A DNA stretch of 64,000 bases, from assembly GCF_964204865.1 (NCBI RefSeq), contig NC_135263.1:18087426-18151425 (forward strand), read 5' to 3'. Position 1 is the first letter of the stretch. Each line of letters starts with the position of its first letter. The notes under the pieces were generated by a model. It did not search any database. It was not told the origin of the DNA and was given only the letters and a program-made list of their open reading frames with translations. Made by a program: the position numbers and the translations under genes. Source of the stretch: Styela clava (Eukaryota > Chordata > Ascidiacea > Stolidobranchia > Styelidae). This document shows, piece after piece, positions 26,958 through 49,026 of this stretch.

Positions 26958-28528
26958 ATGAACATGGGGTATCTGACAATTCTAGGATTGTTGGCAACGG
27001 CGGTAGCGCTATCGACTGCGACGTACATTCGTAAGTTTGTTGGTTTAAATCATTTTACTTAAACTTTCTACTGCACGACAAGCCCTATTGCCGTTCTAAT
27101 TTCAAATATTCGTTCAAAAAACAGTTCAGGCTTGATTCATAAAGTCAAGACAATCAGTTACAAAACTAGATTACTAGCAACTAGATTTTCTACTCGCATT
27201 TTTTCTCCTTGCTTTCATACAAACAGTAACATAATGCATACATGCAATAGAGTTGATTTTTTTTCGCCGTGAAGTGTTACCAGGTTAGGCATGTATAAAT
27301 CTTGGTATGAACTGTTCTTGTTTTTTGTTGATACTATTCCTATTTCATTTTCAGGCCCGGTACATTGTAGATACAAGTACTCAAAAGTTGGATTATGTTA
27401 CCGTAGTAAAGGAACTTATTATCAGAAGTACTCTTGCAACATCGGTCAATACCCACGGTATCATGGAAGACAATGCCCGCCGACGATAAGATATCAACGT
27501 GAGTAGTGGTACTGTTCATAAATTTAGTGTCATGTACCAACCGCGGTTTATATTCTGATACAGAGGTTCGAACTCTACAAGGAGCACAATAAATAAACGC
27601 ATCCTGACTTATCATCTCTGTACGGAATAACTCAATGACTTAGCAAATTTAGTTGATCAATTTATTTATTGTGCTCAATTCTATCTACAATATCACAAGC
27701 CAATTTGATAAATACGAGAAATTAAGTTACCCGCATTTTCAAAGAGTCTGATATGGTTGTGATGATTAAAAGTTTCAAATTACATCATGTATGCTTGTAC
27801 TGAACTGAATTACAGATTTCATGCAAAAATTAACAATTGATTAACACTGTTTTCAAACAGGTTGCAAATATAGCAAAAAAGACAAAAGTTACCATGGTGG
27901 ATATGGTGGTGACAGCGTGTATGACTATCTTCCCGGTAAGATGAAGCATTACATATATGAGCGCAAAGATCCTGATGACTACAGGAAAAAGAGAAGAAAA
28001 AATAGAAAAGGAGGATCATCTGGATCATCATCGGATTCAGGTTCCGATCGCAGAAAGGGCGGCAGAAAAGGAAGTGGAAGCGGCAGTGGAAGTGGAAGCG
28101 GGAGCGGGAGCGGAAGCGGAAGTGGTAGCGGAAGTGGAAGTGGAAGCGATTCTGGTTCAGGGTCCGACAGTGATCACGGAAAAGGCTATTCTAGATATCC
28201 TAAAGGATATGGATCCGGATCGGATAGCGATCGTGGTGGATATGCGAAGAATTACTACAAAGGTCGGGGTGGATCCGGATCGGATAGCGATCGTGGTGGC
28301 TATGCGAAGAATTACTACAAAGGTCGGGGTGGATCCGGATCGGATAGCGACCGTGGTGGCTATGCGAAGAATTACTACAAAGGTCGGGGTGGATCCGGAT
28401 CGGATAGCGATCGTGGTGGCTATGCGAAGAATTATCACAAAGGTTACGGTTCTGGGTCGGATAGCGGTGGAGGACGTTATCGCAAAAATTACCATAAAGG
28501 ATATGGATCCGGATCGAACAGTGACTGA
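26958..28528 (+). CDS. Gene A: secreted TSR-like protein with Ser-Asp/Tyr-Lys-Gly repeat tail (3 exons)
   Basis: Exons 26958-27030, 27355-27498 and 27861-28528 join in phase (C|GC, C|GT) to 294 aa. Exon 1 encodes a 24-residue signal peptide (MNMGYLTILGLLATAVALST). Exon 2 is a TSR-like domain (VHCRYKYSKVGLC, later GRQC); the conserved Trp is Tyr here. Exon 3 opens with RCKYSKKD, its Cys completing the domain, then a basic segment (KKRRKNRKGG), a Ser-Gly run, and four near-identical 60-bp units encoding GSDSDRGGYAKNYYKGRG plus a degenerate fifth. Start choice: first ATG after the TATA box, opening a signal peptide. AATAAA at 28632 follows the stop. Gly/Tyr/Lys and Ser/Asp repeats of this kind occur in structural and adhesive proteins; function here is inferred only. 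Confidence 0.88.
28211..28507 (+). repeat. Coding minisatellite, 60-bp unit
   Basis: Units start at 28211, 28271, 28331 and 28391, each opening with GGATCCGGATCGGATAGCGA; a diverged unit follows at 28451. Near-identity at silent sites points to recent expansion. Unit length is a multiple of three, so the frame is kept. Confidence 0.92.
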
Positions 28529-28631
28529 GAAATTGATCAAGAACTCATCAGCAGACATACCCGAACCATATATTTGCTTCTTAGTTTTTAAATACATTGA
28601 GTAATTAGATCTATGATTTTCAGTGAAATTT

Positions 28632-28637
28632 AATAAA
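28632..28637 (+). terminator. Polyadenylation signal of gene A
   Basis: AATAAA lies about 104 bp after the stop codon. Confidence 0.55.
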
Positions 28638-28726
28638 ATTCTCATCCTATTCAAGATTGAGCGTTTTTTTTTTATAGGGCGAAAAGTAAGAAGTGTAGGG
28701 CGTACGCCAATTTCCTAATTTGTTTT

Positions 28727-28846
28727 GGGACCTCCTGAAGTATGCGCACCAAGAAGGCGCACAACCTGAACTCAGTTTCTGTACATTGTACAAGGTCAAG
28801 GTCCAGGTGGTGCGACATCTTGGTGCGTATACTTCAGGAGTACCTT
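28727..28846. mobile_element. MITE-like palindrome downstream of gene A
   Basis: GGACCTCCTGAAGTATGCGC and its inverse GCGTATACTTCAGGAGTACC form about 40-bp arms. They share GAAGTATG and CCAAGA with the element at 6790-7024, so both likely belong to one family. Confidence 0.6.
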
Positions 28847-29193
28847 GTTTTGTGTGTTCGAGACGGCAAGTTTTAGAACTTGGAAAAGAATACAAAAGCC
28901 AATGGGTGGCATTGACTATATTATTTGACAACATTTCTGTTTAGGCAGGGCCCTTCGAAATTGAATTAAATGAATAAAATGAAAATATTTAGGCACCAAC
29001 CTGACTAAAGTTATAAGGAGAATAAGCCTTCAACATATCATAAGCATCAGTTCTTTCTATTAACTTATGCGTCGGAAGAATAATAGTTCAACTATGCCGT
29101 GTCGCCGAGTATGGGGCTTCAAATAAATGTATCGGGTAACTAATCGAAGAACACACTTTTTTAAAACATATCCTCATCTATAATCAATCGTAG

Positions 29194-29372
29194 CTAAACA
29201 AAATAGCACATATGGAATCGATATCATTGCTGCCGTAGTCGGAGTTGGGATTACCATTTTATTATATTTGCTAAAATATGGCTTCCGGCACACATATATA
29301 TATGATCACGAAAGATCAGAAAGTGGGTTAACTAAAAAGAAAACAAAAAATAAGTCAAGAAGAAGAATATAA
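29194..29372 (+). CDS. Orphan terminal exon encoding a transmembrane helix and basic tail
   Basis: After an acceptor (AATCGTAG), two bases plus 58 codons run to TAA. Residues 8-28 (IDIIAAVVGVGITILLYLLKY) form a clear membrane-spanning helix. A tail ending KKKTKNKSRRRI is positively charged, as expected on the cytosolic side. AATAAA follows at 29436. No first exon is visible between 28529 and 29190. The phase (one base needed from upstream) matches the donors of gene A exons 1 and 2, so it could be an alternative last exon of gene A giving a membrane-anchored TSR protein. It could also belong to a gene I failed to see. No start codon is assigned. Confidence 0.5.
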
Positions 29373-29435
29373 ATAACTATTCAAACTCAAATAATTGGAG
29401 TTTATCAGCTGAACACTTAAAATGAAACTGAAACG

Positions 29436-29441
29436 AATAAA
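29436..29441 (+). terminator. Polyadenylation signal after the transmembrane exon
   Basis: AATAAA about 64 bp after the TAA stop, in a suitable position to end a transcript containing 29194-29372. Confidence 0.45.
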
Positions 29442-29449
29442 ATTTTGCT

Positions 29450-30930
29450 TGTCCAAACTAAGTTGTTTAATAGTTTACAAAAACATAGAAAAAAATATTT
29501 AATATTTTCAAATACAAGATTTAAGGTGTTTTTATGTACAATAAATTTTCGTCTTTACAAGGAATACAAAATATTTTTTTAACCGTACATATTTTATTTC
29601 AAAAACTTTACACTTTATAATGTTTTTATTCAAAATCATTCACAAGAGACAATATACCCATTCATTAGTCGTCTATTAAAAGCGCGCTAACTTTTACCAA
29701 TTCGAGTTAGTTGCACTTTGTCTATGAGTATCGTTTACGTGCAATGTCAATTATCCCTTGCCAATCATAAGTTTGTTTAATAGTTGTGTACTAGGTTTCG
29801 GCGTTATGCAACCATGTAATAATAATTATTTTGAACCTATGACTTTGAACTTCTCTTGACAACACCTGGAAGATACACAAATTAACTGTCACCTAAATAG
29901 GAATCTACTCATTGCATTCATTTAAATGAAATCATAGATTATTATTGTAAGATTTATTAAGAAAAATGATTGATTAAAAACAGTAATATTTACCAAATAT
30001 ATTTCAAAATTTTATGTTTATGTACCTATTTTCACGAATTTCGATATAAAGGTTATCGATTGAACAATCTGACACACCTATTTTCGAACATCATCACATT
30101 ATATACAAACAGATATTATATACACATCGTTTATATAACACCGAACCGGATGCTGTGTTTATTTTTGACTTTAAATTACCAAAATATTAAAATTCTCAAT
30201 GACTGGTTAACCGTTACTTATACGTAACACAGTGCTTACAATTTGATGTATAATTTTTATATCTTGATAGACTTATTAGGTTCAATTTGTTTCGTTGTTT
30301 TATATTAACATTACGAAACAATGTCTTATCGCATTATGTCTCATCGAGTACAATTCCAAACTTTTTAACAACGGTTCGATATTTTTTCAACTATATACGA
30401 CAGATAAGTGTAATTTGTTCAAAATTCAAATAACAGCAACACAATCACCTCACACAAAAATTTGAATTGAAAAACGAATCTCACAGAGCCGAAAATATCT
30501 TTGATATAAAAGGGACATCCTCTCAGCGATAAGCTTTGATCAATGAAAATTTCAAAGCAATTGGTCCAGTATTTGAAGAGAAAAGCGCTTTATCACAATA
30601 ACAACATAATAACAAAACGACCCATAGGTCACCTTCGTTTCTAATAATAAAACGGTTCATAGATACATTTTGTGTCCAAAATAAGAATAACGAGCAATTG
30701 CAGATCGGGCAATACACTAAAGATTTGTATATATTAGGTTAACTATAATTATATGAGCTCGTCCAAATTTTGCAGTCAACACTTTTGTGCAGTTCATGAT
30801 TATATTTACCAAATAAGTCTTCTTGATAGAATCTTGAAACTCTGAGATAATTATTTTGATAGTTCGTGCAAGCGTCTTAATTGCGTTTAATTCTTGTATA
30901 ATATAAACAAATGGATATATAGCACAGTGA
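29450..30930. other. AT-rich intergenic stretch
   Basis: No gene is seen. One dispersed-repeat copy lies at about 30541-30640. Confidence 0.5.
30541..30640. repeat. Dispersed repeat copy (family also at 13050 and 35866)
   Basis: AATTTCAAAGCAATTGGTCC and AGTATTTGAAGAGAAAAGCG are nearly identical to 35866-35905. The right half is diverged. Confidence 0.6.
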
Positions 30931-30938
30931 AGGTAAAC

Positions 30939-31332
30939 ATCACAGTAAAAAAACGCAACGATACCGCAAAATTCCAGCTAATACGAATTTAATTTGTTTA
31001 CTACTCTAGACAAAGTAGAAGTCATTTAAATATTGAAAGTAATTGGAAAGAATGTCATAGAAAGCGTACAAACATATTATAATACAATGTTCCCAATAAT
31101 TGAAAAAACAGTAAAATCTTGGTCGTTATTAGATTTAGCAATTTTAAAGTTTTTATTTTAATTATTGGGTACATTGTGATATTACATGTGTGCTTGCTCT
31201 ATATAACATCCCTTCTATTTACTTCAATATTCAAGTGAATTTGATTATTCATATTTACTGTGCCTAGAGTAGTAAACGAATTAAATTCGTTTTAGCTGTT
31301 CCTATGCTTATTTTGCGGTATATTACTGTGAT
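30939..31332. mobile_element. MITE or DNA transposon with about 65-bp inverted repeats
   Basis: The left arm begins ATCACAGTAA and includes ACGAATTTAATTTGTTTACT. The right arm is its inverse (AGTAAACGAATTAAATTCGT, ending TTACTGTGAT). The core (about 31015-31255) has no open frame. Confidence 0.65.
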
Positions 31333-31689
31333 CGTCGTAGCTCCACTTTATATCTGATAATTTGAAGGACCAAGGACCGTACAAAATATGAGATAGCTCA
31401 CCGCAAACAATATCTGGGAATTAAATAATGATCGTTTAGGTACTACTTGATGTTACTTGTATTACAGCAGGTCCTTATACAAAACCACAGATTTTTTTCT
31501 ATCAAAATGAAAAGAAGAGTAGTCAATTGCGCCAGTCGCTGCCGCCTCTCACTTGTTACATAAAGAATAGAATGGGCCATAAAAATGTATCGAAAAAAGA
31601 AAGATCTGTCTTGTTTGTTCTTGTATGACGGGGAGACATTTTTAACAAAAAAAGATTGTATGCAAAGAAATTGATACCAAGGTTAATGA

Positions 31690-31695
31690 TATAAG
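31690..31695 (+). promoter_or_regulatory. Probable TATA box of gene B
   Basis: TATAAG lies 65 bp before the start codon at 31755, close to the spacing in genes A and C. Confidence 0.45.
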
Positions 31696-31754
31696 CTGAA
31701 TTTTCAAGCAAAAAAACAGTTTTATGCAGAATTGCTCTAATGCAGATCTGCACA

Positions 31755-34047
31755 ATGAAGAAGCATTATCTGTTACTTGTGCTGTGTTTGGTTTCATTAG
31801 GCTTTGCGGTAACTGCAGAGACAATAGGTAATGTATCAACTTTTTTTTTTGCTAAATCAGTACAAAATAGTTACTAATTTATTATTAAAAATAAAGTTAG
31901 GTCCAATAAAAAAAAAGGATTATACAAATATGAATACTGCTGCATTTGTATTTTCAAAAAATACCCTTATTGCAAGTTCAATACGTACGTGAATTTATCA
32001 CGAATAAAGAGAGCATTTTGTTGCAATTTGCTAAGTTAAGTTTAATATTATGCGGAAGTATCAACTATAACAAATCTTACATGGTAAAGAAAGATACTGA
32101 ATCATTTCAAAAGTTGTTTTTTTTAAATATGCTTTTAATGCACAATAGTGAAATTGAAATAAAATGTTGAACTAGGTAAAATGTTTTATGAACGTTTGAT
32201 TTATGTATAAACGTTTGCAAACTTTTGAAATAAAGCAGTAATAAAGAGGTAATTGAATAGCAATTTTTTTTTTCTGTTTAGAGGATGATGTGATGGATGA
32301 GGAACTTGAAGGTAATAATTACTGTACTACAATTTCATCAGCATGCTATCCTCGAGAATATTTTTGAAGATTCCAATTCTAATTTTAATATAAATATAGC
32401 ATATTTTTTGTATAGATTCAGAAGAGCCCATTGATTGTGTTTATTCTGAATGGCAGCCGGTTGGAAATTGTGAAGTTTTCGGTACCGTGAAATTCCGAAA
32501 ATATGTACGTACGGTCGTCTTTTCACCAACAGGAGGCAAATGCCACGGAAAACTGACATCTTTCAGAAGTATGATATTTTTCTTATGTCACATAAAATGT
32601 TGTTAGTCGATTTTGATTGATTTCAAAACTTCAGATAATATAAACAGACAAATTAACAAGGAGCAACAAAAAACATCCCCACTGTTACTAAACAGTACAA
32701 ATGGTAGTTAACATAGTATTGGAATTTTTTTTTTATTATATAAGATTTCAGACTTCACCTTGTTTTCGCGTTTTACTATTTTTTAACAGCTTCATTTATT
32801 GTTACAGTTTGCAAATATCAGAAAGAAGGTGACGACGACAATAACAACAAAGAAGATAGAAAAGACGAACATGAACATCGTAAATCAAACTGGTGAGAAG
32901 TTCACCTAATATTGATTCAATAATTGGCAATGATTTCAAATGCATAACACAATTATAAACCAAACGCACAGTTGGAGAAATATTTTCGATGAAGTTAGAT
33001 GATATACCTAGATCAGATTAGATTTTTTTCTAAACGATCTTTGATCTATTTAGCGTAAAATTTGATTTTAAATTAATCAATACTTTTATTCCCTACTAAA
33101 CCAATGCTATTTAAATAGTATATTCATCCATTTTATTTTGGAGTAGTTTCAAATTGTTTTCAAATTTATGCGTCCTCCTCGAAATGCGATCTAGAATTGT
33201 ATTCTTCAAGACAGTCACACACTTTCATCATGATGAAGTCTTACTTACTGTATATTGGAATATTATTAAAAAGAAATTATTTATTTAATTTTGTATAGAT
33301 CAGCTATTTAGAGCTCTGAGTATAGCCACGTTTTTAAACTTAACCCCGATCTGATATGAATATTTATTTCTATCTTTATATGTTGGTTCCAAATGAATTC
33401 CAAATGCCCAGGCCCAAGAGAACACTAACACCAGTCCAATTTTTAACTCTGATATGTGTGATAAAACAATGGCCGATGTCAATGGTCCAATTCTTATTTC
33501 AAAAGGCACAATCTAGAATGAAGTAATATATTTTGAACAAAACAGGTACGACATTCCTGTGAGGACCTTGGAACAAATGGAGAGTCCAGTTAAATGGGTT
33601 CACACGGCGCACAAAAGGTACAAACGCTGGGAAAATATGGGATCTGGAACATCCGGAAGCAGCAGCGGAAAATCAAGTAGTGGAAAGTCTAGCAAGTCAA
33701 GCAAATCAAGCAAATCAAGTAAATCAAGTAAATCGAGCAAATCGAGTAAGTCGAGCAAATCGAGCAAATCAAGCAAGTCCAGTAAATCTAGCAGCAATTC
33801 AAGCTCATCCAGTAATTCTAGCTCAGATTCCGGAAGCAGTTCTGATGGTGGAAGCTACTTACGCTGCATACCAAAAATTGGAGGCAAGGTATTTTGTTAC
33901 CGCGTGAAAGGAGGACACAAACATGGAGGACACAGGAGAATTAAAGGTGGATACCGTGCAAAAAGCTACCATAGTAGTTCCGACTCAGGACATGGAGGAA
34001 AAAGGGGAGGATACCAGGAAAAAGGCTATCATCATGGTTCCGACTGA
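31755..34047 (+). CDS. Gene B: secreted TSR-like protein with poly(Ser-Ser-Lys) tail (5 exons)
   Basis: Exons 31755-31827, 32282-32311, 32416-32568, 32808-32892 and 33546-34047 join in phase (843 nt, 280 aa). Exon 1 is a signal peptide (MKKHYLLLVLCLVSLGFAVTA). Exon 2 adds ten mostly acidic residues. Exon 3 is the TSR-like domain (IDCVYSEWQPVGNC, then PTGGKC). Exon 4 opens with ICKYQKEGDDD, whose Cys completes the domain, then an Asp/Asn/Lys/Glu/His-rich stretch. Exon 5 has eleven SSK tripeptides, a Ser/Asn/Asp stretch, a two-Cys segment (LRCIPKIGGKVFCYR) and a His/Gly/Lys/Tyr-rich end. An in-frame upstream ATG at 31740 would add five residues before the signal core; 31755 fits the exon length of A and D (24 codons plus one base). 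AATAAA at 34141. Confidence 0.88.
33688..33786 (+). repeat. Coding tandem repeat, 9-bp Ser-Ser-Lys unit
   Basis: Eleven consecutive SSK codon triplets. Codons vary (TCA/TCG/TCT/TCC, AGC/AGT, AAA/AAG) while the amino acids do not, which suggests selection on the peptide. Confidence 0.88.
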
Positions 34048-34140
34048 ATGTTTGAAAATCAACTAAAAACATAACTAATAGAAGCGCTAATTGAATTGTT
34101 GAAAATCAAATGTAATATGCTTAGAATCATATACCAGAAC

Positions 34141-34146
34141 AATAAA
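34141..34146 (+). terminator. Polyadenylation signal of gene B
   Basis: AATAAA about 94 bp after the stop codon. Confidence 0.6.
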
Positions 34147-34436
34147 CTAGTTTTTTTTTTGGTTAATTGCATTTTCAAAATAAAATTTGGATTATACGAA
34201 AATAAACTGCAATTGTATTAGTGGATGGAGATGGAAAATAGCCTAATAAAATTTTCGAGATTGCTACGGTATGTCTTTATTCGCTATACAAAACCCTATA
34301 AAATAGGCATATAAGGTCAGAAATATGATCGGTAATGTATTCTTATTCGAAGGCTGTTTTCAAATCCTAAAAAAAGTCAATAGCAAAACGAACAGGCATC
34401 TTTAAAGCCGATGCAACCCAAATTATCTGCCAGCAT

Positions 34437-34776
34437 TTTCTCTAATAGGATAAGATTTACATATTTATCCCGGGGGAGAGGAAAGCCGATAAGACGGCTT
34501 ATCCATATGGCGAACCAAGGCCTTTCGTCCGGTTACCATTCCAAGTCGGGTGTGGAATTAGTTATATTGTTTGTTTTCGGAAGCATGGACTTGGTGGTGG
34601 AGGAAGCCGTAACCGATCAGCGGTACGTGAACCACCAAACGACGGCGAGGAGTCCAGCAATCCTCTCGCACATACCCATCCCTGCATGGGATTCGAACCT
34701 GCGAACCCACGCAGAGTAATCAGAGGTGCGGTGGCGAGCGTATTCCTAACGCTTAGCCCGTTGAGCCACACCGTGC
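34437..34776 (-). mobile_element. tRNA-derived SINE
   Basis: On the minus strand the head starts GCACGGTG and has a pol III A box, TGGCTCAACGG (34768-34758), and B box, GGTTCGAATCC (34699-34689). A longer unrelated body follows, running to about 34437. Box A and B matches are near-perfect, but the spacing and long body exclude a functional tRNA gene. Confidence 0.75.
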
Positions 34777-34799
34777 AGCGTTTATAGTTTTAATCAATA

Positions 34800-35860
34800 G
34801 CTTTAGTTGACATGACAAAATAAAATTTCAGTGACAATATACCCAGTACAAAATATACTTGAGAGTTGTGGTATGAATATGTTTCACAACAACACGGTCT
34901 TAGCAACAGGAAGTACTATAACAGGTAGTACTATACATTAACTGAAAAAGTATGCCTAAAAAAATACGTACTACAGTTTCCACTTTTTTACCACCTGTCC
35001 CACTTGCAACACTAGACCCACACCTATCCTTTGATTTTCTTGCTTTTATCATTTGCCCATTTGTTTAAACTTGTCCTACTTGCACCAACATGTACACTTT
35101 GTCCAGTAGACAAATTATCTGATGATTGAGGTTTACTCAAACAATTCATCTGATGAATGAGAAGTAATTGGATAAAACATAAAACTAATAAAATATCCTT
35201 ATCTGAATGGAAATTGGCAAGTTGGTGCTGTTGTGTCGGGCGTCGAAATTCATTCCCGCGACGCAGTGTGACGTCGTTTCGGAAGTGACAAAAAATGATC
35301 TATGTGAGGTTGACGTAACTTTTGACGCAGCGTGAAATCTCAATATTTTACGGAATTTTCAACTCGGAATTTAAAGTTTTAGTTAAATCTTGTACGACAT
35401 CTTGCGATCACTCTGATGAATTATATAAATTGTTATCGCCCTCTACCGAATGATGGTATTTTGACGATGACAGCCTCAGTAGAAGCGCTGTTGAATAGCG
35501 GGTAGTCATTTTTTCGCATAAATTCCGTTTTTTTAATAAAAAAATCATGCAGAATTTAAGAAGTTGAGAAGTACAAGTAACAGCGCTAGCCATTAAAATA
35601 AAAACTGGCGAAATACTACGCTTTTTAGCCGAGATATGACCGTTTGAAATTTTTGTCCGAAGTTTGGCACCATCCGAGGTTGTCCGAAGGCAATTTTACG
35701 GTACGGGTACTAGAACTGAAATCTTTTATATGTTTCCTGTTTATAATACAACAATGGTCTAGTTACAGAAGTGTAACCTGTAAAAAAAAAAAACTAATTT
35801 CAAACCGTTACCGTACCCCCAACAGCCCTCACTTTACCAGTTCAATCTTCAACCACTTCA
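34800..35860. other. Intergenic, repeat-like
   Basis: No gene. 35220-35860 is more GC-rich (CGTCG motifs) and looks like mobile-element remnants of unclear class. Confidence 0.4.
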
Positions 35861-35865
35861 AATTT

Positions 35866-35993
35866 CAAAGCAATTGGTCCGGTATTCGAAGAGAAAAGCG
35901 ATTTTATCATGACGAAGGAGAAAACTAACAAGAACAACAACATAATATTGAAACGATCGTTATGTCCACTAAACGTGTCCAATAATTCCTAAC
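35866..35993. repeat. Dispersed repeat copy (family also at 13050 and 30541)
   Basis: Shares AATTTCAAAGCAATTGGTCC, GAAGAGAAAAGCG and CGTGTCCAATAATTCC with the other copies. Confidence 0.65.
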
Positions 35994-35999
35994 TTCAAT

Positions 36000-36897
36000 G
36001 CATAAAAAGGTGGATAAAATTAAGCAATAATTCCTGTCAGCTGGATTGTCTTTTCCGCGGAATAATAATTCTGATATCGGAGTCCTCATTTTGACAAGTT
36101 TCGAAAGTTATTTTGAGATTCATCTCTTGGCGTTCACGGTGCCCCGACGACACTTGCACGCGAGTGTACATAATTATTTGACATTGGTGTTTGTAACAGG
36201 CCACATTTTTATAGACGTATATTAGATTTTTATGTATAGATTGAATTACGGGAGACCGTTTTCTTTATAACGAACAAAACTTATTTATTTACATTACATT
36301 GATAAAGTCGAAACTCTAATCGAGAAATTTTCTTACATTGAACAATTATTACAAATAGCACTCAATAGTATGAATAAAAATCGTCTGGCCGAACCTGACA
36401 CATAGCACCACGCAAATTGCTTGAATGCCTCATGCCTTCATGTCGCCCCTTTTATTATATTTTTAAACTTGAAATCTTGGTCAATGGTAGTCCTATTTTC
36501 TGTCTTAAATTACTTTCTATCTGTGTGAATCCCACTCCAAAGTTGCATGTGTTACTGATTGAAACCATTTTAAGTTATCCCGCGCCTCTAATGACAAAAA
36601 ATATATTAGTTTTACGTTGTGGAGGCCAATTTTCTTGAGTATTTGTTGGCAAAATCATTATTTTAATGCAATGCAAAAAGTGTCAAACACTTTGGACATG
36701 GATGCAATAGCACAAGAAACAGAGTTAAATCTTTTTATGACTCCGGCTGTTGGCACCAACAGGTGGCATCGAGCCTCTTCACGATTGGGATCGCCATCAC
36801 AATTTCATCAAAAAACACTGAAATAGGCATCAAACACTTCACCTATAGATGGAGTGGCAAATATGTCACGTGGTTTGGCATAAATGGCAATTTTGTC
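36000..36897. other. Intergenic, no gene recognised
   Basis: Short chance frames only. 36417-36830 has two open frames of about 70 codons without domain motifs. Confidence 0.4.
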
Positions 36898-36905
36898 CTC
36901 TTCAG

Positions 36906-37753
36906 CAGGGTCGTCCAACTACTATATTTCGAGTGATGTAGTACACAAAGATGTGATACAAACGATTTGTTTATTTTCCTGAAATGAGCCCTGCCAGCCC
37001 TTTCAAACGAGCCATTAGTGACATTTTGAATCGAAACCAACTAGGAGCAGATATCGATAAATAAAGGTGCCATAATGGCTTACACACTTGGTCTTTTACT
37101 ACTCTATATGACCTTATCGCAAAACAATCGAAGCCATTCTCAGATTGAAAATTTGTTAATAAATGTATATTATGTATTGTTCGGGTTGCAAATGTTTTAC
37201 GTCCGGAAATAAAAGAGGTTTTTGCAAAAATAGCCTGTCAAAACAGACCATAACTCGTCATGTCGAAGAGCTTGAGAACTCTTTAGCAGAAACTTTAATT
37301 GGCCGACAAAAGCGGGAAAATTTTCATCGTACTCCTTGGTGCTTGACGAAAGCACTGACAATAAGGTTACTACTCCTCAGTTGGCAATCTTCTTGTGGGA
37401 AGGTAATAAGGATTTTGAAATTACCGCAGAGCTCGCAGCCATTGTCCCTATTAAGACGAGAGTACGACTAGAGGCATTGGTCTGTTGAGAGCTGTGATGA
37501 AAACGACCAAGCGTCTTGGCTTGGCTTTGACGAAACTTTCAAAAATAACTACTGATGGCGCCCCATCAATGGTTGGGAAACAACAGTTTTATTGGTACAA
37601 TAATTGTGGAAGTTTGATGTGCGGGAATTGTTTGTTTTTTTATTAACCTGTAATCAGTGTAGCATGACTAGAACATAATGCCATGTTAAGTGGCCCGCGC
37701 AATCATTAGTAAACTACATGTGGCCCTTCGGCCAAAAAGGTTGGACGTCCCTG
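36906..37753 (+). mobile_element. hAT element with transposase remnant
   Basis: CTCTTCAG at 36898-36905 is repeated exactly at 37754-37761. Termini CAGGGTCGTCCAAC and GTTGGACGTCCCTG are inverted. Inside, plus strand, frames shift but the peptide runs RHVEELENSL, FEITAELAAIVPIKTRV-like and KITTDGAPSMVGK (37542-37580). These match hAT transposases of the GTF2IRD2/ZBED-like group, where TTDGAPSM is conserved. It is internally deleted and dead. Confidence 0.88.
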
Positions 37754-39500: not shown

Positions 39501-39574
39501 AATTCCTGTATATGAGATCGGTGCTGACTGCAAATCAGCATTCTGTCTTTTTTATGGATCAAAAACAACTGAAA

Positions 39575-40561
39575 ATGAAGATGCGTGTGTTCTTGTTACT
39601 TGGATTCCTCGTAGCAAAATCATTTGTAGTTGGTGGAATTCCCGTAGGTAAAAATGGTTATATTTTCTTTACATTCTACATGTATATGTAGACAAATAAA
39701 AAGGATGCAGTAATTTATCACAAAATTTATTAATTGTTTTTATATACAGAAGAATAATCAATTCCTGCATTTTCTCTGAATGGGTGTCGGAGGGGGTGTG
39801 TGAGAAAAACGGTCCTTTTTTAGTACAAAATTTTTTTAGACAAGTGATAGAAAATGCAGATGGTCAGAAATGCACTGAAAATACATTTTTGGTTTCATAC
39901 AAGCGTAAGTTCAATATTCTTATAAGATAATACAAAGTCAATGTCTTTGAGTTTGGTTTTACAACAAATATTGACTTAATATTATTGAGCTTTTCATTAA
40001 TTCATATCCAGAACAACGCATATATATATTTGTAGAGAGAGATAGAGTTTGATTTTTGTAATTTCATTCGTAAGTTTGGTTTTCTTACCAGTCAAGTCAT
40101 TAAAACCTGTACTAAGTTATCGTGACTCAATATTGGTTTCATTCAAATTACTTCGCTAATAAATTAGTATTTTTGCATGCGTTTATTCCATTTTATATCA
40201 GTGATCACTATTTAGGAATGATATACCCATTACAACTTTGAACGGAGTAGAAGAGAGTAACTTCAAATATATAATACCAAAGAAAAGGAAAAAAAAGACG
40301 ATCACGATCGTCCGGTTCCGATACCCGTACTAGGGGAACAACTAGAACCGACACACGGAGCGATTCAGATGGTGATAATCCACATAAACCTGGACATGGC
40401 CCCGGATTCAAATATGGTTTGAATTCAGAATTAGGAGCGGTCGTAGACAAGGTGGTGGGTACCGAAATGGTTATGCTCAAATAAATAGCTATGGAGGTGG
40501 ATACGCCCCTTAGCGTTACGGATATGGTGGTGGTTATGTATATCGTCGCAGATATGCATAG
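39575..40561 (+). pseudogene. Gene D: broken fourth member of the TSR-tail family
   Basis: Exon 1 (39575-39647) is intact: ATG plus a signal peptide (MKMRVFLLLGFLVAKSF), 24 codons plus one base, as in A and B. The TSR-like exon (39750-39904) keeps SCIFSEWVSEGVC and DGQKC and good splice sites. It is one base short for the required phase, so normal splicing hits a stop at once. The tail region (about 40216-40561) has several stops and at least one frameshift. Across frames it retains KKRRSRSSGSD, SDSDGDN and Gly/Tyr-rich GGGYRNGYAQINSYGGGYAP. The simplest reading is recent decay of a paralogue. A polymorphic allele or assembly error is possible. Confidence 0.75.
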
Positions 40562-40691
40562 GTGCATCTGCATTGCTGTTGTTTTCAAATTATCAGATAT
40601 ATTTTATTTCGTATATGCCTATATTGATAAAAATAATATACTAAATACCGGCGTGAAAATACAAATTAGTTTTCATGTTTCGAAATAGAAA

Positions 40692-40850
40692 AATTGGTGT
40701 CACTTCGGTAAGCGATCTCAGCGGTTTTGTGATATAGCAGTGACTTTAGCAATAACCCAACCCTAACCTACAGATGTCTTTATGAGATTGAACGCTTACC
40801 TAAGTGGCACCACAATTGGTTTCACTTCGGTATGCGATTGAGATCACGTT
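40692..40850. mobile_element. MITE-like inverted repeat plus adjoining partial copy
   Basis: AATTGGTGTCACTTCGGTAA (40692) and its inverse TTACCTAAGTGGCACCACAA (40796-40815) bound a 126-bp element. A second left end (AATTGGTTTCACTTCGGTAT) starts at 40815. Confidence 0.6.
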
Positions 40851-40859
40851 AAGCAAGTG

Positions 40860-43690
40860 AGATCATGTACCAAAACAGTTTATTGACACTGAGATCGCAT
40901 ACCGATCGCATACCGCAAAAAATATTCATCATTTCAGAATTGGTGAATTCAAACATGATGACTTTTATCAAGTTTGCCAAGCATTTGGCGTGATTGAGTG
41001 TATTTCCAAATACAAAAACAATACCCAATGAAGCTGAGTTTTATGAGATAGTGTAGCACTTTCCTTTCTTGCTCATTTTCTTCTTTGCTTTTCACACAAA
41101 TTTGTCATGTGCTAATACATTAATTAAGTAATGGCCATTTACTAACAATGGGTGAAAAATAAATAGTTTAGCTGTATAGCAACATCAGTGTCTACACGTT
41201 GATATTCATTCTCTATAAAAAATTTTAATTCAGTTACCTAATCTGTTACTAAAAATGAAGGCGTCAATATAATTGATGTAAAATTATTCCAAGATATCAG
41301 TTTTGACTACAATCAAAAATTTACAAAGGAAATAATCTATGTCGTCCAATCATGTCGTCCAGCGAATGAATGATATCAATTTAACCACAACTGAAAAACT
41401 CAGGGACCTTTTTTTTAACAAACCCTCTAATGTGAAAACAAAATAATACTCCATATGCACAATATTATGTCACGGATCCACGCAATCATATGGAATTAAT
41501 TAGAACACTCCGCTATATTCTGGTCTGGCACACCAAAGGGCACCAAATACGGGGGAAAATTCTACTTAATTCGCGGAAACATATTTAATTGGTAAACTAA
41601 ATAATTTGGCATAACCATGGCAGTTATGTGGCTAACTAATATTGTGTGTTGTTTAATACCCATTAAATACAAGCTTGATTATTATTTTCCGCAAATGCAA
41701 TGTGTTGTCAAACTGCCTACCGTTTAAATAGCCTATACCTATTGGATGACGAAGCGCGTCAGAATCATAAAAGATTTGTCGCTATGAAGCAGCCTAAATC
41801 GAAATAGTCACTCGCTGGGAAATTTCAAAGTTATTATCGTGGACCACTCGTGTAATAAAACTAAGGATACATTTAACAAACTCCGTCACCGCAGTGCCGT
41901 AGGATATAAATATTATAAAATGATATGGACAGATAATCGTCGACCAGAGATAATATATCGTAAATGCGATATTTATGGTTCAAATAAATTTTACTGTACA
42001 AACATAAAGATCAGATAGATCCGACTACACATATTTGATGTTCACTCTTTATTGCATAACGACCCGCACGTCATCATTGAGAATCTATAAACTATATATT
42101 TATATATGGTTTGTAGACTGCACGTCAATGGTTGGAAAAGTTTTGTGGTCAGCTGATCGTTGGTCAAATAACCTTACCAGGTTTGAGATTCAGGTTAAGA
42201 TATTTTGTTTCGTCATGCATGAAACATTGTCAACAAATAATAATAATAAATTAAAATAAATCAAAAACACACAATGTTTCGCAATCGACGAGGAGTCGCG
42301 AAAGACTATTGAGTCATCGTGTCAGCGACACCTATATGCTCGATTACAGCAACATATATAGAAAAAGAATTGGGTTTAACACATACACATTTTAACACAT
42401 TAAAGTCAGTGATTATATTCTGACGTATCGTGGGTCACTTATTTAATACCTGCTCCATGAATGACCACTTGAGTATTTCATGATTTATGAACTGTTTTAT
42501 CATTTAGCAGGTTGTTAGTCAGCATTACTAACGCCTACCTAAGTTATATTAATTCATGATAAAATACTTTGATTTACCTTTCTAGTACGTAGCATTTAAG
42601 TATCTTGGAATTAGAGGATACAGTTACATGCAAAGTGGCGACCTACACCGATTGTTTTCACAGTACTCAGTAATGGATTTCTTTTTCAGGTAGTTGATCA
42701 AATCACGGGTTCGTGCTAATATTGAATATAATTACGTTCAATGGATTTTCCACTGGAACGTTTTTGAATGAAAGTTGTCACACACACAATTATCGAGAAA
42801 TAATTTTTATTCGTATAATAATTCTAGATGGCCATCTCTACAATGCAACCGCTGCATACATACATACAAGTTTTCACCGATGCATGTTTGTAGCGCACCA
42901 ACAATGGTGCCACCTATATCTTATTAACACAACCAACAGTTTTCAAATTGCTTTGAACGACGAAAACCGTACAACAACATTTTTTTCGACCGTTTTTGCA
43001 GAAAATTAATTACAAATATAGTCCGTTGGGAATGACATTATTATCTGAAACAACGTAAGCTAAAACTGCGAGCAAAAGAGGCAACCACAATGGCACTGTC
43101 GTCGCAGTCTTTAAACTTTTATGAACTGATTAGAGTCGAATACACGGAAGAATGAAAATGAACGGTGGCTTTGTGACATCACATAGTATAATCGCCGGAC
43201 AAAAAAATGCAGTGTGCCATGAGAACTCTCCATTGTTCTCCACAGTTCAAGAGTTCTAAACTAAGAAAGGAATCATTGGTGAGTTGGTTATCCGGAAACA
43301 TGACGCGGGCTGTAAACGCGACCAAGCAAATGCCACTAAGAGTGCAATCGCATTCTATTTGTATCTGGCACTTCTTTCTGTATTTACCATAATCACTGTT
43401 TTATCTTATATATATATAGCTTATTAATTGTTCCGCGAGCGGCTATAGAAACACTCATGCATGAGAGAAAATAATAATTGCCCCTTAAGAGTTTAAGTAA
43501 GGGTGATATTTTGCTTCTCTGAACTGCGTGGATGCTTTGAATTATATTCAATCGCACTGTGCGTTCTCCTCTTTTGCCTCTTTCTTCATAAAGACGCGAC
43601 AACCGGTTAAATCTATTATCTTGATGATCTATATATCACGTAACCGTCACGAAATTCGGCATTTAAACTAAAGTCTATGTAAAGTAATAT
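40860..43690. other. AT-rich intergenic stretch upstream of the lectin gene
   Basis: No gene or known repeat recognised. Frames up to 98 codons (42713-43009) lack any motif. Confidence 0.45.
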
Positions 43691-43704
43691 AGTGGTTAGC
43701 CGCT

Positions 43705-44406
43705 ATGCATATCTTAGTAATCTTAGTCCTAATTGTTTCACAATCTGCCTTATTTCCCTGTCTCCAATGCGGTGTTAATTATAAAAAATCGACATCGCGA
43801 TTAAATCTCACTCTTAGCATAAATTTCTCGCCGGCGTTTCTCCACAACAAAACAACTGTCGAACCGGAGCCTTTTGCACCTGTACAAGCAACCAAGCCTA
43901 CATACAAGCTTTCTTTATGTCCAAGATGTATTCAGCAACCTTGCATATTCGACATGAAAATCGTGGAAGATTACAAAAAACAAATAGCGGATATCGAAAG
44001 ACGTCTAAGTCATCTTGAAGCCGGAGGAATAGTGTTTGGTGATTGTTGGTACTGGCTCAGCAGCTATACAATGAATTGGGATGCTGCAAAGGGGGAATGT
44101 GAAAGCAAAGGAGCAAGACTTGCAACGGTTGGAGTTCGGGATAACAACATACGGTATCACCTCGAAGGTATCATAAAAGATCGTGGTGGTGGATTTTATT
44201 GGATTGGTCTGAGTGATAGATGGAATGAAGGTACCTGGAAATGGTCTGACGGAATTTTTTCTACCGGATCGAATACACCATGGAGAAAAGGAGAGCCGAA
44301 CAACCACGGAGTAAAAGGAGAAGATTGTGGAGCATTGGAAACTGGGCTCATCGATCATTCCTGTGGAACGATGTTCCGGGCAATTTGCGAGAAAGATATT
44401 GTGTAA
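43705..44406 (+). CDS. Secreted C-type lectin (single coding exon)
   Basis: 233 aa, uninterrupted. Residues 1-23 are a signal peptide (MHILVILVLIVSQSALFPCL). Residues 24-85 are a Ser/Thr/Pro-containing stalk with N-glycosylation sequons (NLT, NKT) and a Cys cluster (CPRCIQQPC). 82-106 can form a short coiled coil (DYKKQIADIERRLSHLEAGG), suggesting oligomers. 107-233 is a C-type lectin domain: FGDCWYWLSS, WDAAKGECESKGARLATV, FYWIGLSD, WKWSDG, GEPNN, EDCGAL, CGTMFRAICEK. The EPN tripeptide predicts mannose-type sugar binding in this family. The usual WND is replaced by LIDHSC, so calcium-site strength is uncertain. The CTLD is not interrupted by introns. ATTAAA at 44512 may end the transcript. 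Confidence 0.9.
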   Translation: MHILVILVLIVSQSALFPCLQCGVNYKKSTSRLNLTLSINFSPAFLHNKTTVEPEPFAPVQATKPTYKLSLCPRCIQQPCIFDMKIVEDYKKQIADIERRLSHLEAGGIVFGDCWYWLSSYTMNWDAAKGECESKGARLATVGVRDNNIRYHLEGIIKDRGGGFYWIGLSDRWNEGTWKWSDGIFSTGSNTPWRKGEPNNHGVKGEDCGALETGLIDHSCGTMFRAICEKDIV

Positions 44407-44529
44407 TTTAAATTGGCTATTTGCAATTGGCGATAAACTTCGCACGACGTTTTGTATATGCGAATTGCTGTATTTGATGTAATTTTTTTTAATTTCTTTT
44501 TAATTGTGTTTATTAAATGTGTCAGTAAA

Positions 44530-45065
44530 TTATCCAAAGATTTGACGACAGAGTAGCTATTCACATTTAACCAATTTATATTATATTGGTGTTTATATAA
44601 TCACTACATGATATCATCTCTATTATTGTTTGTAATATGCATGATATAAAATTATACCCAATTGGATAATTGGTATCAAATATATTTATAAATTTGTAAG
44701 GTCCACCAACCGGACCTACGCTTGTCTGCCTATTTGTTTCCCGTTATTGAATACGCTGCCCGATGACCGGGGTGATCTGGAAATAACTACTCGTGTTCTT
44801 ATGTCACAGTTAGCTTAGCGGTCATAGCAGGAGTAAATGTTCTGTGGCAAAAGCTCGTGTCTGTGTAGACCCTCAGGCATGCGAGTTACGTAGGATTTAC
44901 TGTTGGAAAAGACACGTATTTTGTGGCTTGTGCGATGGCAATAAAAAGCTCATATTGTAGTAAAAGTCCTTGTAATTTGTTTCCTCACTGATCATGCAAA
45001 TAAAATTAAGAATTAACCTTTGGGAGTAAAATATTCCATTGCCTTAGAACTCCACTTGTTTTGTC
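44530..45065. other. Intergenic; possible SINE-like block
   Basis: 44700-44960 is GC-richer than its surroundings and contains AGTTAGCTTAGCGGTCATAG, vaguely like a pol III A box, and ends GATGGCAATAAAAAGCTC. No B box was confirmed. Confidence 0.3.
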
Positions 45066-45073
45066 TTCTAAGT

Positions 45074-46580
45074 CATAGGTTTTTAAAGTGCTCCGTACGG
45101 AGCCCCAGGGCTCCGCGAGAGAAACCCAGGGGCTCCGCGAGTTATTCAATTACTCTTCAAATTACTGACTAATTTTGTAACTGTTCAGAGAAGCAATAAC
45201 AGCTTTGATAAAATCTGACAACAATATAACCTCGAAATATGGCAAAGAGGCGGAATTAAAAAATGACATTGTTTATAATCAGGAGCGCGGCCAGGATTCT
45301 TAAGAGGGAGGTGGTTCAAAATTGGAATCGGAAATTTCCGCGCAACATTCTTTGCGATTAAAAAAGGGATAACGAGATTTCTGTTGCGTAAAATATTCAA
45401 TCCATGACCGATGCGAGCATTTAACGTGTCTCGTCGTTATAATGTAATTGTGCTCATCGTTACTCACTGTGATTCGAGATTACTATTAGGATTACTAAAA
45501 TGGAAGAATACTATTCTAAAACAACATAAAATATGTGATAAACTACCAACTATAAATAAATTGGAGTCGTATTTTTGCGATCTTGGGATTTGTCAAACTT
45601 GATTTGTTCTTTCGCACTTAAGATTATTATAAAGCAAGATATCGCCGTTTAAAAAATTACAATGTTTGGGCAAAATACAAACAATTAAAATTTATTATGT
45701 TGCATTCGGCTCCGTCGGTAGTTTCAGAATAAAAAAGTTACATCGCGGATCGCGCGCACAGTTGATTGCGTGCGGCTCCGTCGGTAGTTTCAGAGGTACA
45801 TCGCGCGCACAATTGACTCAGTCGCAGTCGATTTCGCAGTTACTACAAAGAAAACCTAAAATAACACCAAATTTTGTGATTTACAATGTCTAAAAAAGCG
45901 TTTTCAATCTGAGGTGAGTCTGCTGAAACCAAACGTGTGATCTCCCATTTTTAAGTTTTAGTTTTAATATTTTAGAATGCCGCTTTTCAATCAAGAATTT
46001 TGAGTTGCGGATTTACCTCTTCATTAATTATTATTTTTAGCATTTCGTCGCCAATGACTATAATATGGTAACATGTTTTTCACATTGAACTCATAATTCC
46101 CCACGAGAACAAAAAAGCAATTAACGTCGTCATTGTGTAACAATACATGTATATGCCGAGGGAAATTTTTGGTTTAGGGAGAATAAACACCGGCGTAAAG
46201 AGGTTTGAAGGTTCAAAAACACGCCATGCTGACGAAAAAATTCGGCGATTGTAACAAAATGCAATGGCGCACGTTATTAGCGCCTTTCAAGTCTTCTAAA
46301 AATGTCAAAAGGGAAAAGATTAGACCCGTAATTTATTATTATGTTTGTCAAGTGTCAGATTTACAGCTTTAGTATATATGATTTATGTATGAAATTTAGA
46401 TTTATTTATGACTTGTATTAACCCTATTAAAAAGGTTCAGCATTAAAATTAGGTATAGTACTTTTAACTTGCTCAGGAATATTATTCTGAAAGTAACAAT
46501 TTTAACATTCATTTTGGGGTCCGTGAATAATAGTCAACCTTTTCAAGGGCTCCGCAACACCAAAAGTTCGAGAACCCATG
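45074..46580. mobile_element. hAT-type element, 1.5 kb
   Basis: Target duplication TTCTAAGT (45066-45073) versus TTCTAAGC (46581-46588), 7 of 8 matching. Ends: CATAGGTTTTTAAAGTGCTC on the left; the inverse of the right reads CATGGGTTCTCGAACTTTTG. GGCTCCGC motifs occur near both ends. It contains two tandem copies of about 67 bp (GGCTCCGTCGGTAGTTTCAG, 45708-45820). No intact transposase. Confidence 0.75.
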
Positions 46581-46599
46581 TTCTAAGCAACTTTGCGCT

Positions 46600-47400
46600 A
46601 AAATATTTCTAAATACCTTAACCAAATCTACATATTCATCATGAACTTGACATCAGTTGTATGGTCGAATTAATCCAATGCAGATATATTGAAAGATACA
46701 CTTACATCTTAATACAATTTATACAGTCGAAATCCAAATCAAATATTGCATATTTTTGGCTTTATAACTGAAGCCCGGTACCAACCCTGTCGAAGTAGGA
46801 AAATCCACATTATCGATTACTGAACCTCTAAAGTCTAAATGGTATAATGTTGTTGGCGCAAGTAAGATTTATGAACTTTCCAACATTCTTTCTTTCATTA
46901 GCCCATACGGCCATCTGAGAACTGCAATTAATTTTTGAGTCCATTTCAAACATTAAAATATTTCCACGGTTTTATTTTGTTTTTTATGTTTTTCACTTTC
47001 TTTTCTCTTCTTCGGAAATTTGAATTTCGAATGTTTGTGAATTTATTTCAAAATGCCCAGTTGAGTAAAGTAAATTTATGAGAATGCTTCAAAAACTATT
47101 AACAGAATATTAGAGTTTGAGTTTGTTTGAATGAAGAGCAGAATATATTCCCCTAGTATATATGTGCTTCTGCTAATGGTAGACTCCATGATATATTAAT
47201 TATTAATGTTCCCTGCGCATGTCCTCGCTCTTATTTAGCTATTTTATTGGTGTTAGAAAATAAGTGCTATTTTTCCGTCAATAAAAAAAATGTCGATTGA
47301 CCAAATGATGTTAAAATTTTAATATAGAAAGAAAAGACAACTTATAATAATGTAATATTATCGAATAACAATACATTTTAATGAAGTCTTTCAGCGTGGC
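46600..47400. other. Intergenic region 3' of gene C
   Basis: AT-rich, no gene seen. Possible minus-strand ATTAAA signal for gene C at 47377-47382, 30 bp after its stop. Confidence 0.4.
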
Positions 47401-47411
47401 CAAACAATTCT

Positions 47412-49026
47412 CTAATATTGCAGTACGTGATCTTTATGGTACGAATCTTTGGTTGCGGGGCTTCCTTTTCTGCCACCATCGCTATCGGAATCGCTTCCTT
47501 TTCCACCTTTTCGGCCATGATCGGAATCGCTTCCTCTTCCTCCTTTTCCTCCGTGATCGCTATCGGAATCGCTTCCTTTTCCTCCTTTTCTCCCATGATC
47601 GCTATCGGAATCGCTTCCTTTTCCTCCTTTTCTCCCGTGATCGCTATCGGAGTCGCTTCCTTTTCCTCCCTTTCTCCCATGATCGCTATCGGAATCGCTT
47701 CCTTTTCCTCCCTTTCTCCCATGATCGCTATCGGAATCGCTTCCTTTTCCGCCCTTTCTTCCATGATCGCTATCGGAGTCGCTTCCTTTTCCGCCCTTTC
47801 TTCCATGATCGCTATCGGAATCGCTTCCTTTTCCACCTTTTCTGCCATGATCGCTATCGGAGTCGCTTCCTTTTCCACCTTTTCTGCCATGATCGCTATC
47901 GGAGTCGCTTCCTTTTCCTCCCTTTCTCCCATGATCGCTATCGGAATCGCTTCCTTTTCCTCCCTTTCTTCCATGATCGCTATCGGAGTCGCTTCCTTTT
48001 CCGCCCTTTCTTCCATGATCGCTATCGGAATCGCTTCCTTTTCCACCTTTTCTGCCATCATCGCTGTCGGAATCGCTTCCTTTTCCTCCTTTTCTTCCAT
48101 CATCGCTATCAGAATCGCTTCCTTTTCCTCCCTTTCTGTCATTATCGCTATCGGAATCGCTTCCTTTCCCGCCATTGTCGCTGTCGGAATCGCTTCCTTT
48201 TCCTCCATGAGTTGAGCATGATGAACTGCTGCTTCCACCCTTTCTTCTCTTTTTCTTTTTTTTACAGCATTTTGGATTTACTTTTATAGGTTCGAAGCCA
48301 AGAAGAAGCTTGTTTGGGAAGTATATCTTCTCATCTTCTTTATAACTATCGCCATCTCGAGCTTCCTCGTCACATGGATGACAACCTAAAGTGATTAAAA
48401 AAAGTATATTGTTATGATTTGAGTTTAATAAATTTTGATCTATTACATTTTGATGTTGATTTGGATGTTACTTTTATGAAAGTTTTACACTGGTCCTTGA
48501 AAAGTAGATTTTAGTATTGCAGAAGAAGTTCAATGATAAACTTACGTCCATAAAAATATGGCTTTGGGCAATGTTCACCATCCTGTTCTGCTTTTCTGAT
48601 CACCTTGATGTAATATTTTCGAAGATACCCCTTCTTGTACAAGTTACATGGTGTTGCAGGCTCGTATGTTGACACGCAATCGACTGGTGGTGGTGGCGGT
48701 GGAGGTGGGGGCCGATCTGAAAAAAGTTAAAGAGTGATGTGAAATTTTAGAGACTTAGATCCATTGGCGAAAATTCGACATTATTTTTTATTGGGAAATA
48801 TAAAGTCTACAAATATCGACTCCCAAAGTATATAAACCAAAAAATTTACTCCTATTCAACAATTGGATTTTGGTAAAAGTGAAATTTGAATAGCGGCATA
48901 CTATTGTACTGGCATATAGTATTAAATTGAAAAGAATATAAATTGGTTTAACATAAACTTACAATATGTCCCAACTGAAACCGCAGCAAGTGCAGACACG
49001 AACGAAAGTATGACAAAAGTCTTCAT
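47412..49026 (-). CDS. Gene C: secreted TSR-like protein with 18-fold Ser-Asp/Gly-Lys repeat tail (3 exons)
   Basis: Exons 49026-48963, 48716-48546 and 48385-47412 join in phase (1209 nt, 402 aa). Exon 1: signal peptide MKTFVILSFVSALAAVSVG. Exon 2: nine prolines, then the TSR-like domain (VDCVSTYEPATPC, later GEHC; conserved Trp lost). Exon 3 opens RCHPCDEEARD, its first Cys completing the domain. It continues with an acidic and then hydrophobic segment (YFPNKLLLGFEPI), CCKKKKKRRKGG, and 18 copies of a mostly 14-residue unit GSDSDSDHGRKGGK, ending in HKDHVLQY. The true frame has no internal Met and its antisense and shifted frames are also open, so it is easily missed. SDSD runs are classic acidophilic-kinase targets, so phosphorylation is likely but unproven. 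Confidence 0.88.
47450..48210 (-). repeat. Coding minisatellite, 42-bp unit, 18 Ser-Asp motifs
   Basis: On the minus strand units read GGAAGCGATTCCGATAGCGA then CAT/GGT/GAT-GG and AGAAAGGGCGGAAAA. Eighteen GGAAGCGA starts were counted. Most units are 42 bp. All lengths are multiples of three, and all three minus-strand frames stay largely open. Confidence 0.9.

What the first reader, a model, noticed from the sequence alone, without database searches (positions are those of the whole stretch)
26958..49026. A local family of secreted proteins pairing one TSR-like exon with three different charged repeat tails
Genes A (26958-28528), B (31755-34047) and C (49026-47412) and remnant D (39575-40561) share a layout: signal-peptide exon of 64-73 nt ending in phase 1, one TSR-like exon in A, C and D (B has a small acidic exon first), then a tail exon whose first or second residue is Cys. 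Tails differ sharply: poly SSK in B, SDSD with GRKGGK in C, SDSD with Tyr-Lys-Gly in A. Seen directly: sequences, phases and order. Inference: secreted polyelectrolytes meant to assemble together in a matrix, adhesive, tunic or mineral-associated layer. I know of no named family with this layout.
Basis: partly seen in the sequence, partly recalled or inferred. Interest (0 to 1): 0.87.

Follow-up and report, generated by a model that had tools for sequence, protein, structure and literature searches.

The report
Sea-squirt secreted proteins with charged tails
A small cluster of related sea-squirt genes appears to make secreted proteins that join one small folded module to long, repetitive charged tails, perhaps building blocks of an extracellular coat or glue; the genes look real, but what they do is inferred.

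Summary
A, B and C join in frame at GT..AG sites with phase-1 boundaries around the TSR-like exon. Their repeat arrays vary mostly at third codon positions (16 of 21 variable sites; p 7e-5), so the tails are kept as protein. D is probably a pseudogene.

Corrections. B's third exon is TSR-like too. The Cys opening each tail exon is the module's last shared Cys. The module is not exclusive to these genes: gene N, 19 kb away, has nine similar modules plus a vWA domain. The tails are only partly 'three different' ones.

The genome is very probably Styela clava. Six protein searches of it gave no confident second locus, but they would miss distant members: B's search did not find A or C.

The module is TSR-like at best: four shared Cys; only B matches TSP models, below cut-off. 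B's predicted structure lies nearest TSRs, pleiotrophin and midkine, not significantly; C's does not.

Best reading: local secreted matrix proteins, docking module plus cross-linkable polyampholyte tail. Expression and function untested.

The parts
26958..28528 (+). Gene A: signal-peptide-like exon 26958-27030, TSR-like exon 27355-27498, tail exon 27861-28528 (Cys as second residue, KKRRK patch, (GS)13, four 20-residue GSGSDSDRGGYAKNY.KG units, GY-rich end)
31755..34047 (+). Gene B: signal-peptide-like exon 31755-31827, 30-nt acidic exon 32282-32311, TSR-like exon 32416-32568, exon 32808-32892 with Cys as second residue, tail exon 33546-34047 with 11 SSK units, a CIPKIGGKVFC stretch and a GGY/K/H-rich end
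   Evidence: Pfam TSP1_spondin E 0.016 over profile 1-50 of 52, below cut-off
47412..49026 (-). Gene C: signal-peptide-like exon 49026-48963, proline-run plus TSR-like exon 48716-48546, tail exon 48385-47412 with KKKKKRRKGG patch and about 17 units like GSDSDSD.GRKGGK
39575..40561 (+). D: probable pseudogene of the family; signal-peptide-like exon, TSR-like exon about 39750-39903 (closest to B), tail split over two frames, one with a stop
189..8133 (-). Gene N, related neighbour: signal-peptide-like start, nine four-Cys TSR-like exons (7823 to 3688), linker with RRKR, vWA domain; first-exon and vWA splices read by eye
   Evidence: VWA E 8.3e-23

Best explanation
A, B, C and dead or dying D are paralogues lying together in a Styela genome, probably formed by duplication and exon shuffling in a neighbourhood of TSR-like genes. 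Each makes a small secreted matrix protein. A degenerate TSR-like module with four shared Cys, the last supplied by the next exon, and the adjoining Lys/Arg patch dock the protein on sulfated glycans or other matrix. The disordered tail is a polyampholyte: lysines, serines in acidic context that could be phosphorylated, and, in A, tyrosines that could become DOPA. Tails would pack by charge pairing and be fixed by phenol-oxidase cross-linking in an extracellular layer such as tunic, haemocyte secretion, egg envelope or adhesive. Shown: exon structure in the DNA, kinship of the modules, conservation of the repeats as protein, charge pattern. Inferred: splicing in vivo, secretion, glycan binding, modification, assembly, tissue.
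For: Exons, phases, splice sites. Third-position variation in repeats. Module kinship by shuffling (21 pairs of A, B, C, D and 3 of the 9 N modules): 9 pairs reach 0 or 1 of 1000, namely B-D (z 11.1), B-C (7.1), C-A (6.2), C-N9 (6.1), B-N4 (4.3), D-N6 (4.1) and three within N; 6 pairs lie at 6 to 26 of 1000. B's module matches TSP1_spondin and TSP_1 weakly. Its best AlphaFold model has three strands, pLDDT 84.6 (five models 70.7-84.6), and the first seven PDB entries are TSR or pleiotrophin/midkine structures, none significant (E 0.55-1.5). Tail charge: A +44/-22, B +40/-18, C +67/-67; S-x-x-D/E sites 17, 3, 37; Tyr 26, 9, 4. Matrix-like neighbours: vWA in N, C-type lectin and a weak collagen stretch, F5/8C. 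Tyrosinase-family exons exist in the genome (16 matches of 26 candidates). Tuphoxin, a tyrosinase with TSP1 module, is made in blood cells and secreted into the tunic of ascidians incl. Styela (PMC9395347; beginning of text and passages). DOPA-containing proteins and peptides of ascidian blood cells are known (PMC3039461, passages).
Against: No expression, proteomic or localisation data. Only B's module matches a TSP model, below cut-off; A, C and D match none, nor did the six N modules scanned (of nine). C's model is poor (pLDDT 65.6) and matches no TSR. A profile of the 13 modules found no TSR among PDB chains, and B alone found nothing. The N-module profile finds B only at E 0.084, and A, C, D not at E 5. 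Six of 21 module pairs look unrelated by shuffling (214 to 965 of 1000), including A-D (669). No shared upstream sequence. Low-complexity tails can look alike by convergence. S-x-E sites, the usual Fam20C signature (recalled), are absent from all three tails. A review states that a link of DOPA to ascidian adhesion was never made (PMC4275875, passages).
Confidence: 0.5

Rival explanations
1. Granule-packing or proteoglycan-type proteins: A's (GS)13 run carries glycosaminoglycan chains as serglycin does, and the cationic tails pack with heparin or dermatan sulfate in test cells or haemocytes.
For: A has 13 consecutive GS units varying only at third positions and 23 SG dipeptides in its tail. 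Styela plicata test cells and haemocytes hold heparin or heparin-like glycan (PMC5487770, passages; heparin in S. plicata tissues also PMC4160087, passages); serglycin has an alternating SG sequence with GAG-bearing serines (PMC5487770, passage).
Against: Only A has the GS run; C's tail has no SG. GS runs are also common as plain linkers (recalled).
Confidence: 0.15
2. Haemocyte antimicrobial proteins: cationic His/Gly/Lys tails act on microbes.
For: Tails of A and B are net +22; clavanins and styelins are haemocyte peptides of Styela clava (PMC3039461, passages and reference titles).
Against: C's tail is net zero, and -74 if every S-x-x-D/E site were phosphorylated; no amphipathic design is apparent by eye.
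Confidence: 0.1
3. Heparin-binding signalling proteins working like pleiotrophin, midkine or R-spondin.
For: TSR-like module plus Lys-rich clusters; pleiotrophin and midkine are among the first structural matches of B, not significant; the TSR motif of pleiotrophin is thought to bind heparin/heparan sulfate (PMC8955691, passage).
Against: Four shared Cys per module, fewer than the five disulfide bridges described for pleiotrophin; no PTN/MK Pfam match for A and B whole or for the modules; long repeats of varying number do not suit a cytokine.
Confidence: 0.07
4. Mineral-associated phosphoproteins, with SDSD tails binding calcium.
For: C's tail has 53 SD dipeptides and 37 S-x-x-D/E sites.
Against: C's tail also has 67 Lys/Arg; I recall no mineral spicules in Styela clava.
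Confidence: 0.05
5. Gene-model artefact: chance exons beside expanding DNA repeats.
For: No RNA evidence; tandem repeats are present and expand readily.
Against: Third-position variation, consistent phases and splice sites, kinship of several separate modules.
Confidence: 0.05

Closest known systems
Thrombospondin type 1 repeat (TSP_1 PF00090 / TSP1_spondin PF19028)
   Same: B: weak match over nearly the whole profile, DC..SEW..C..R..GG.C spacing, three-strand model nearest to TSRs
   Different: Four shared Cys (A has a fifth); below the curated cut-off; A, C, D not recognised; a single module before a tail
Pleiotrophin/midkine (and, recalled, R-spondins)
   Same: TSR-like module with Lys-rich clusters; among the first, non-significant structural matches of B's model
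   Different: Two domains and more disulfides in PTN/MK; no long repeat tail; no Pfam match
Tuphoxin (tunicate TSP1-tyrosinase)
   Same: Secreted Styela protein with a TSP1 module thought to bind tunic matrix (PMC9395347)
   Different: Enzyme with EGF and tyrosinase domains; TSP1 recognised by domain search; no repeat tail described in what I read
Marine polyelectrolyte adhesives (sandcastle worm cement, mussel foot proteins; largely recalled, reviews seen only as listing)
   Same: Lys/Tyr/Gly-rich and Ser-rich repeats of opposite charge
   Different: No TSR-like module (recalled); unrelated animals; adhesion here untested
Serglycin
   Same: Run of alternating Gly-Ser in A; SG run described in PMC5487770
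   Different: No TSR-like module or Tyr/Lys repeats in serglycin (recalled)
Gene N of this window (TSR-like x9 plus vWA)
   Same: Four-Cys module, phase-1 exons, last Cys at the start of the next exon
   Different: Nine modules, mostly or all with C-x6-C spacing (B, D have C-x10-C; A, C C-x9-C), vWA domain, no charged repeat tail

Membership tests
TSR (TSP_1 / TSP1_spondin) | Score over the Pfam curated cut-off | tested here: not met
   B 15.9 bits against 41 (TSP1_spondin) and 15.4 against 21.6 (TSP_1); A, C, D no TSP match. The TSP1_spondin cut-off is strict: 128 of the 143 exon-wise matches elsewhere in this genome also lie below it
TSR (TSP_1 / TSP1_spondin) | Six conserved Cys in three disulfides (recalled) | tested here: not met
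   Three Cys shared by all 13 modules aligned plus one in the next exon for A, B, C and N
TSR (TSP_1 / TSP1_spondin) | Three-stranded elongated fold | tested here: inconclusive
   B model three strands, first PDB matches TSRs but E 0.55 or worse; C model poor, no TSR match
Pleiotrophin/midkine | PTN/MK Pfam domains | tested here: not met
   No such match for A and B whole proteins or the A, B, C, D modules; C whole was not scanned
Pleiotrophin/midkine | Binding to sulfated glycosaminoglycans | not testable with these tools
   needs recombinant protein
Serglycin-type proteoglycan | Run of alternating Ser-Gly | tested here: met
   (GS)13 in A only
Serglycin-type proteoglycan | GAG chains attached | not testable with these tools
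   needs biochemistry
Polyelectrolyte (coacervating) adhesives | Phosphoserine and DOPA present, phase separation, adhesive-organ expression | not testable with these tools
   only candidate sites counted
Tuphoxin | Tyrosinase domain | tested here: not met
   no Pfam tyrosinase match in A or B; C was scanned in pieces only

The most novel reading that the evidence does not exclude
One locus of a chordate encodes a multi-part secreted material: three paralogues share a docking module but carry a cationic Ser-Lys chain (B), an alternating pSer-Asp/Lys polyampholyte (C) and a Tyr-Lys/pSer chain (A) that co-assemble by charge pairing and harden by phenol oxidase: an independent chordate parallel to sandcastle-worm cement, whose parts evolve by swapping repeat tails on one exon scaffold.
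Probability: 0.15. Interest if true: 0.85.

Novelty: new variant of a known kind. Interest (0 to 1): 0.5.

Why it matters
I recall few identified proteins behind sea-squirt coats and attachments. A compact family with a shared anchor and different charged tails would give direct candidates for in situ hybridisation, knock-down and recombinant material tests, and a clear case of tail-repeat evolution on a fixed exon scaffold. Whether other tunicates have the family was not testable here.

Tried and rejected
Sequence search of the module against PDB chains: B alone found nothing; the 13-module profile gave 4 sequences, three recA constructs and a cystine-dense peptide, judged chance. COX1 search for species or genetic code: no match, 2 candidates scored. 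Beta-defensin resemblance of A's module (E 0.094) and macoilin, cellulose-synthase and other matches of B (E 0.04-0.5): judged chance or low complexity. Homologous linkers: linker cores not significant in any of 3 pairs (A-B 148, A-C 208, B-C 69 of 1000 shuffles reach the score), so not claimed. Shared promoter: of 6 upstream pairs none stands out (13 to 190 of 200 shuffles reach the score), although A and C both have TATAAAA 72 bp before the ATG. Weak C6 match of B (E 0.8, 24%, one stop): inconclusive. Lineage restriction: not claimed, since no other tunicate genome could be searched. Literature: the listings (capped, one open-access library) showed no title or abstract start describing this layout.
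Full report
Source. The window is C18:18087426-18151425 of a 376.6-Mb, 379-contig genome. A partial glycosyl hydrolase family 6 match over the cut-off is present (E 1.5e-6), a gene known in animals chiefly from tunicates (recalled). Two clavanin-type loci are present; one reads VFHLLGKIIHHVGNFVYGFSHVF, a string held by two papers that also name clavanin, one of them titled for clavanin C (listing only). Clavanins come from Styela clava haemocytes (reference titles seen in PMC3039461). So the genome is very probably Styela clava.

Genes. All 8 introns are GT..AG, and their TSR-like exons (144, 153, 171 nt) are phase 1-1. AATAAA lies 103, 93 and 163 nt after the stops of A, B and C (C also has ATTAAA nearer); D has neither in the 240 nt scanned. 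B needs one more intron (32893-33545); without it a stop follows at once. In the repeats 16 of 21 variable sites and 56 of 63 minority letters are at third codon positions (14 of about 17 C units, 11 SSK, 13 GS and 4 long A units used). Binomial p is 7e-5 and 7e-20, the second inflated because copies share ancestry. The repeats therefore look conserved as protein.

Module. The 13 modules aligned (A-D and the nine of N) share three Cys and a Gly. A fourth Cys opens the next exon in A, B, C and between N's modules; D's was not found, and A's module has a fifth. B's module matches TSP1_spondin (E 0.016) and TSP_1 (E 0.021) weakly; A, C and D match neither, nor do six of N's nine modules. AlphaFold with the 13 local modules gives B three strands at pLDDT 84.6. 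The first seven PDB matches are entries of BAI1 TSR3, properdin, pleiotrophin, F-spondin TSR4, Unc5D, pleiotrophin and midkine, at E 0.55 to 1.5, none significant; 50 of 96 matches were listed. The same test with C first gave pLDDT 65.6 and two unrelated matches. I therefore call the module TSR-like, probably TSR-derived, not a TSR.

Neighbourhood. Gene N (minus, 8133-189) has a signal-peptide-like start, nine modules, a linker containing RRKR and a vWA domain (VWA E 8.3e-23). Its modules have C-x6-C where B and D have C-x10-C, the canonical spacing as I recall it, and A and C have C-x9-C. Kinship of N with A-D rests on some pairwise tests (B-N4, C-N9, D-N6) against others that fail (three of nine N modules used), on a weak profile match to B alone (E 0.084) and on an alignment-to-alignment probability of 86%. 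Beyond the right end, at window positions 81572-85416, four further exons look TSR-like; three of them match TSP models weakly (best E 3.3e-4, below cut-off), one does not.

Genome-wide. TSP1_spondin gives 143 matches from 150 candidates scored (1000 in the first look), 15 over the cut-off, none in this locus. So ordinary TSRs abound and the local modules are outliers. Searches with B's exons (5 matches: 3 in B, 1 in D, 1 weak on C6), N modules (7 of 8 candidates, all in N), C's linker (1 of 1), A (4 of 5, all in A), B's C-terminus (1 of 1) and C's repeats (5 matches at E 0.01 from 19 candidates, all in C) gave no confident second locus. These searches are not sensitive: B's did not find A or C, and N's did not find A-D. 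Close copies elsewhere are thus unlikely, distant members are not excluded.

Tails. C's tail is balanced (67 basic, 67 acidic) with 37 S-x-x-D/E sites; A's has 44 basic, 22 acidic, 26 Tyr, 17 sites; B's 40 basic, 18 acidic, 54 Ser, 3 sites. In one search the stretch from linker into repeats is alike in A and C (0 of 1000 shuffles), less so in A-B (21) and B-C (27); C-termini in A-B (3) and A-C (4); linker cores and the D comparisons do not pass. By eye all four have Y..P near the basic region: YDYLP, YDIP, IYFP, YIIP.

Mechanism. Most likely a secreted matrix protein family: module and basic patch dock, tail packs and is cross-linked. Literature support is indirect. Tuphoxin, a tyrosinase with a TSP1 module, is made in ascidian blood cells, Styela included, and secreted into the tunic (PMC9395347, beginning of text and passages). 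Tyrosinase-family exons exist here (16 matches of 26 candidates). Ascidian blood cells hold DOPA peptides and proteins (PMC3039461, passages). Against the adhesive version, a review states that a link of DOPA to ascidian adhesion was never made (PMC4275875, passages). The tissue is unknown.

Verdict. A real-looking local gene family, a new variant of known kinds (repeat-tailed matrix or adhesive proteins with a TSR-like anchor).

Noticed in passing
window 189-8133, minus: Gene N: nine degenerate four-Cys TSR-like exons, RRKR linker and vWA domain; two of the modules (5677-5541 and 4900-4764) are near-identical, probably recent duplicates.
   Followed up: partly
window 43693-44406, plus: C-type lectin in one open frame (Lectin_C E 1.2e-14) with an apparent signal peptide.
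   Followed up: partly
window 62847-63320 and L017:397-648: Short collagen-like stretch with apparent signal peptide (Collagen E 2e-4, below cut-off), followed 1 kb on by an F5/8 type C exon (E 1e-9): possibly one matrix gene.
   Followed up: partly
L018:7572-9046 and L019:1165-1416: Four TSR-like exons on the plus strand, perhaps another degenerate multi-TSR gene; three match TSP models below cut-off, best E 3.3e-4.
   Followed up: partly
window about 6790-7015 and 28725-28850: Palindromic elements seen by eye, with long inverted ends containing GAAGTATG-like sequence, in an intron of N and just after A; they look like small inverted-repeat transposons.
   Followed up: no
G000:C1:10538332 and 10574722 (L046, L045): Two clavanin-type genes about 36 kb apart, one with the exact clavanin C peptide; used as species marker.
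   Followed up: yes
window 26886 (plus) and 49098 (minus), 72 bp before each ATG: TATAAAA at the same distance before the ATG of A and C; not in the 100 bp before B, D or N.
   Followed up: no
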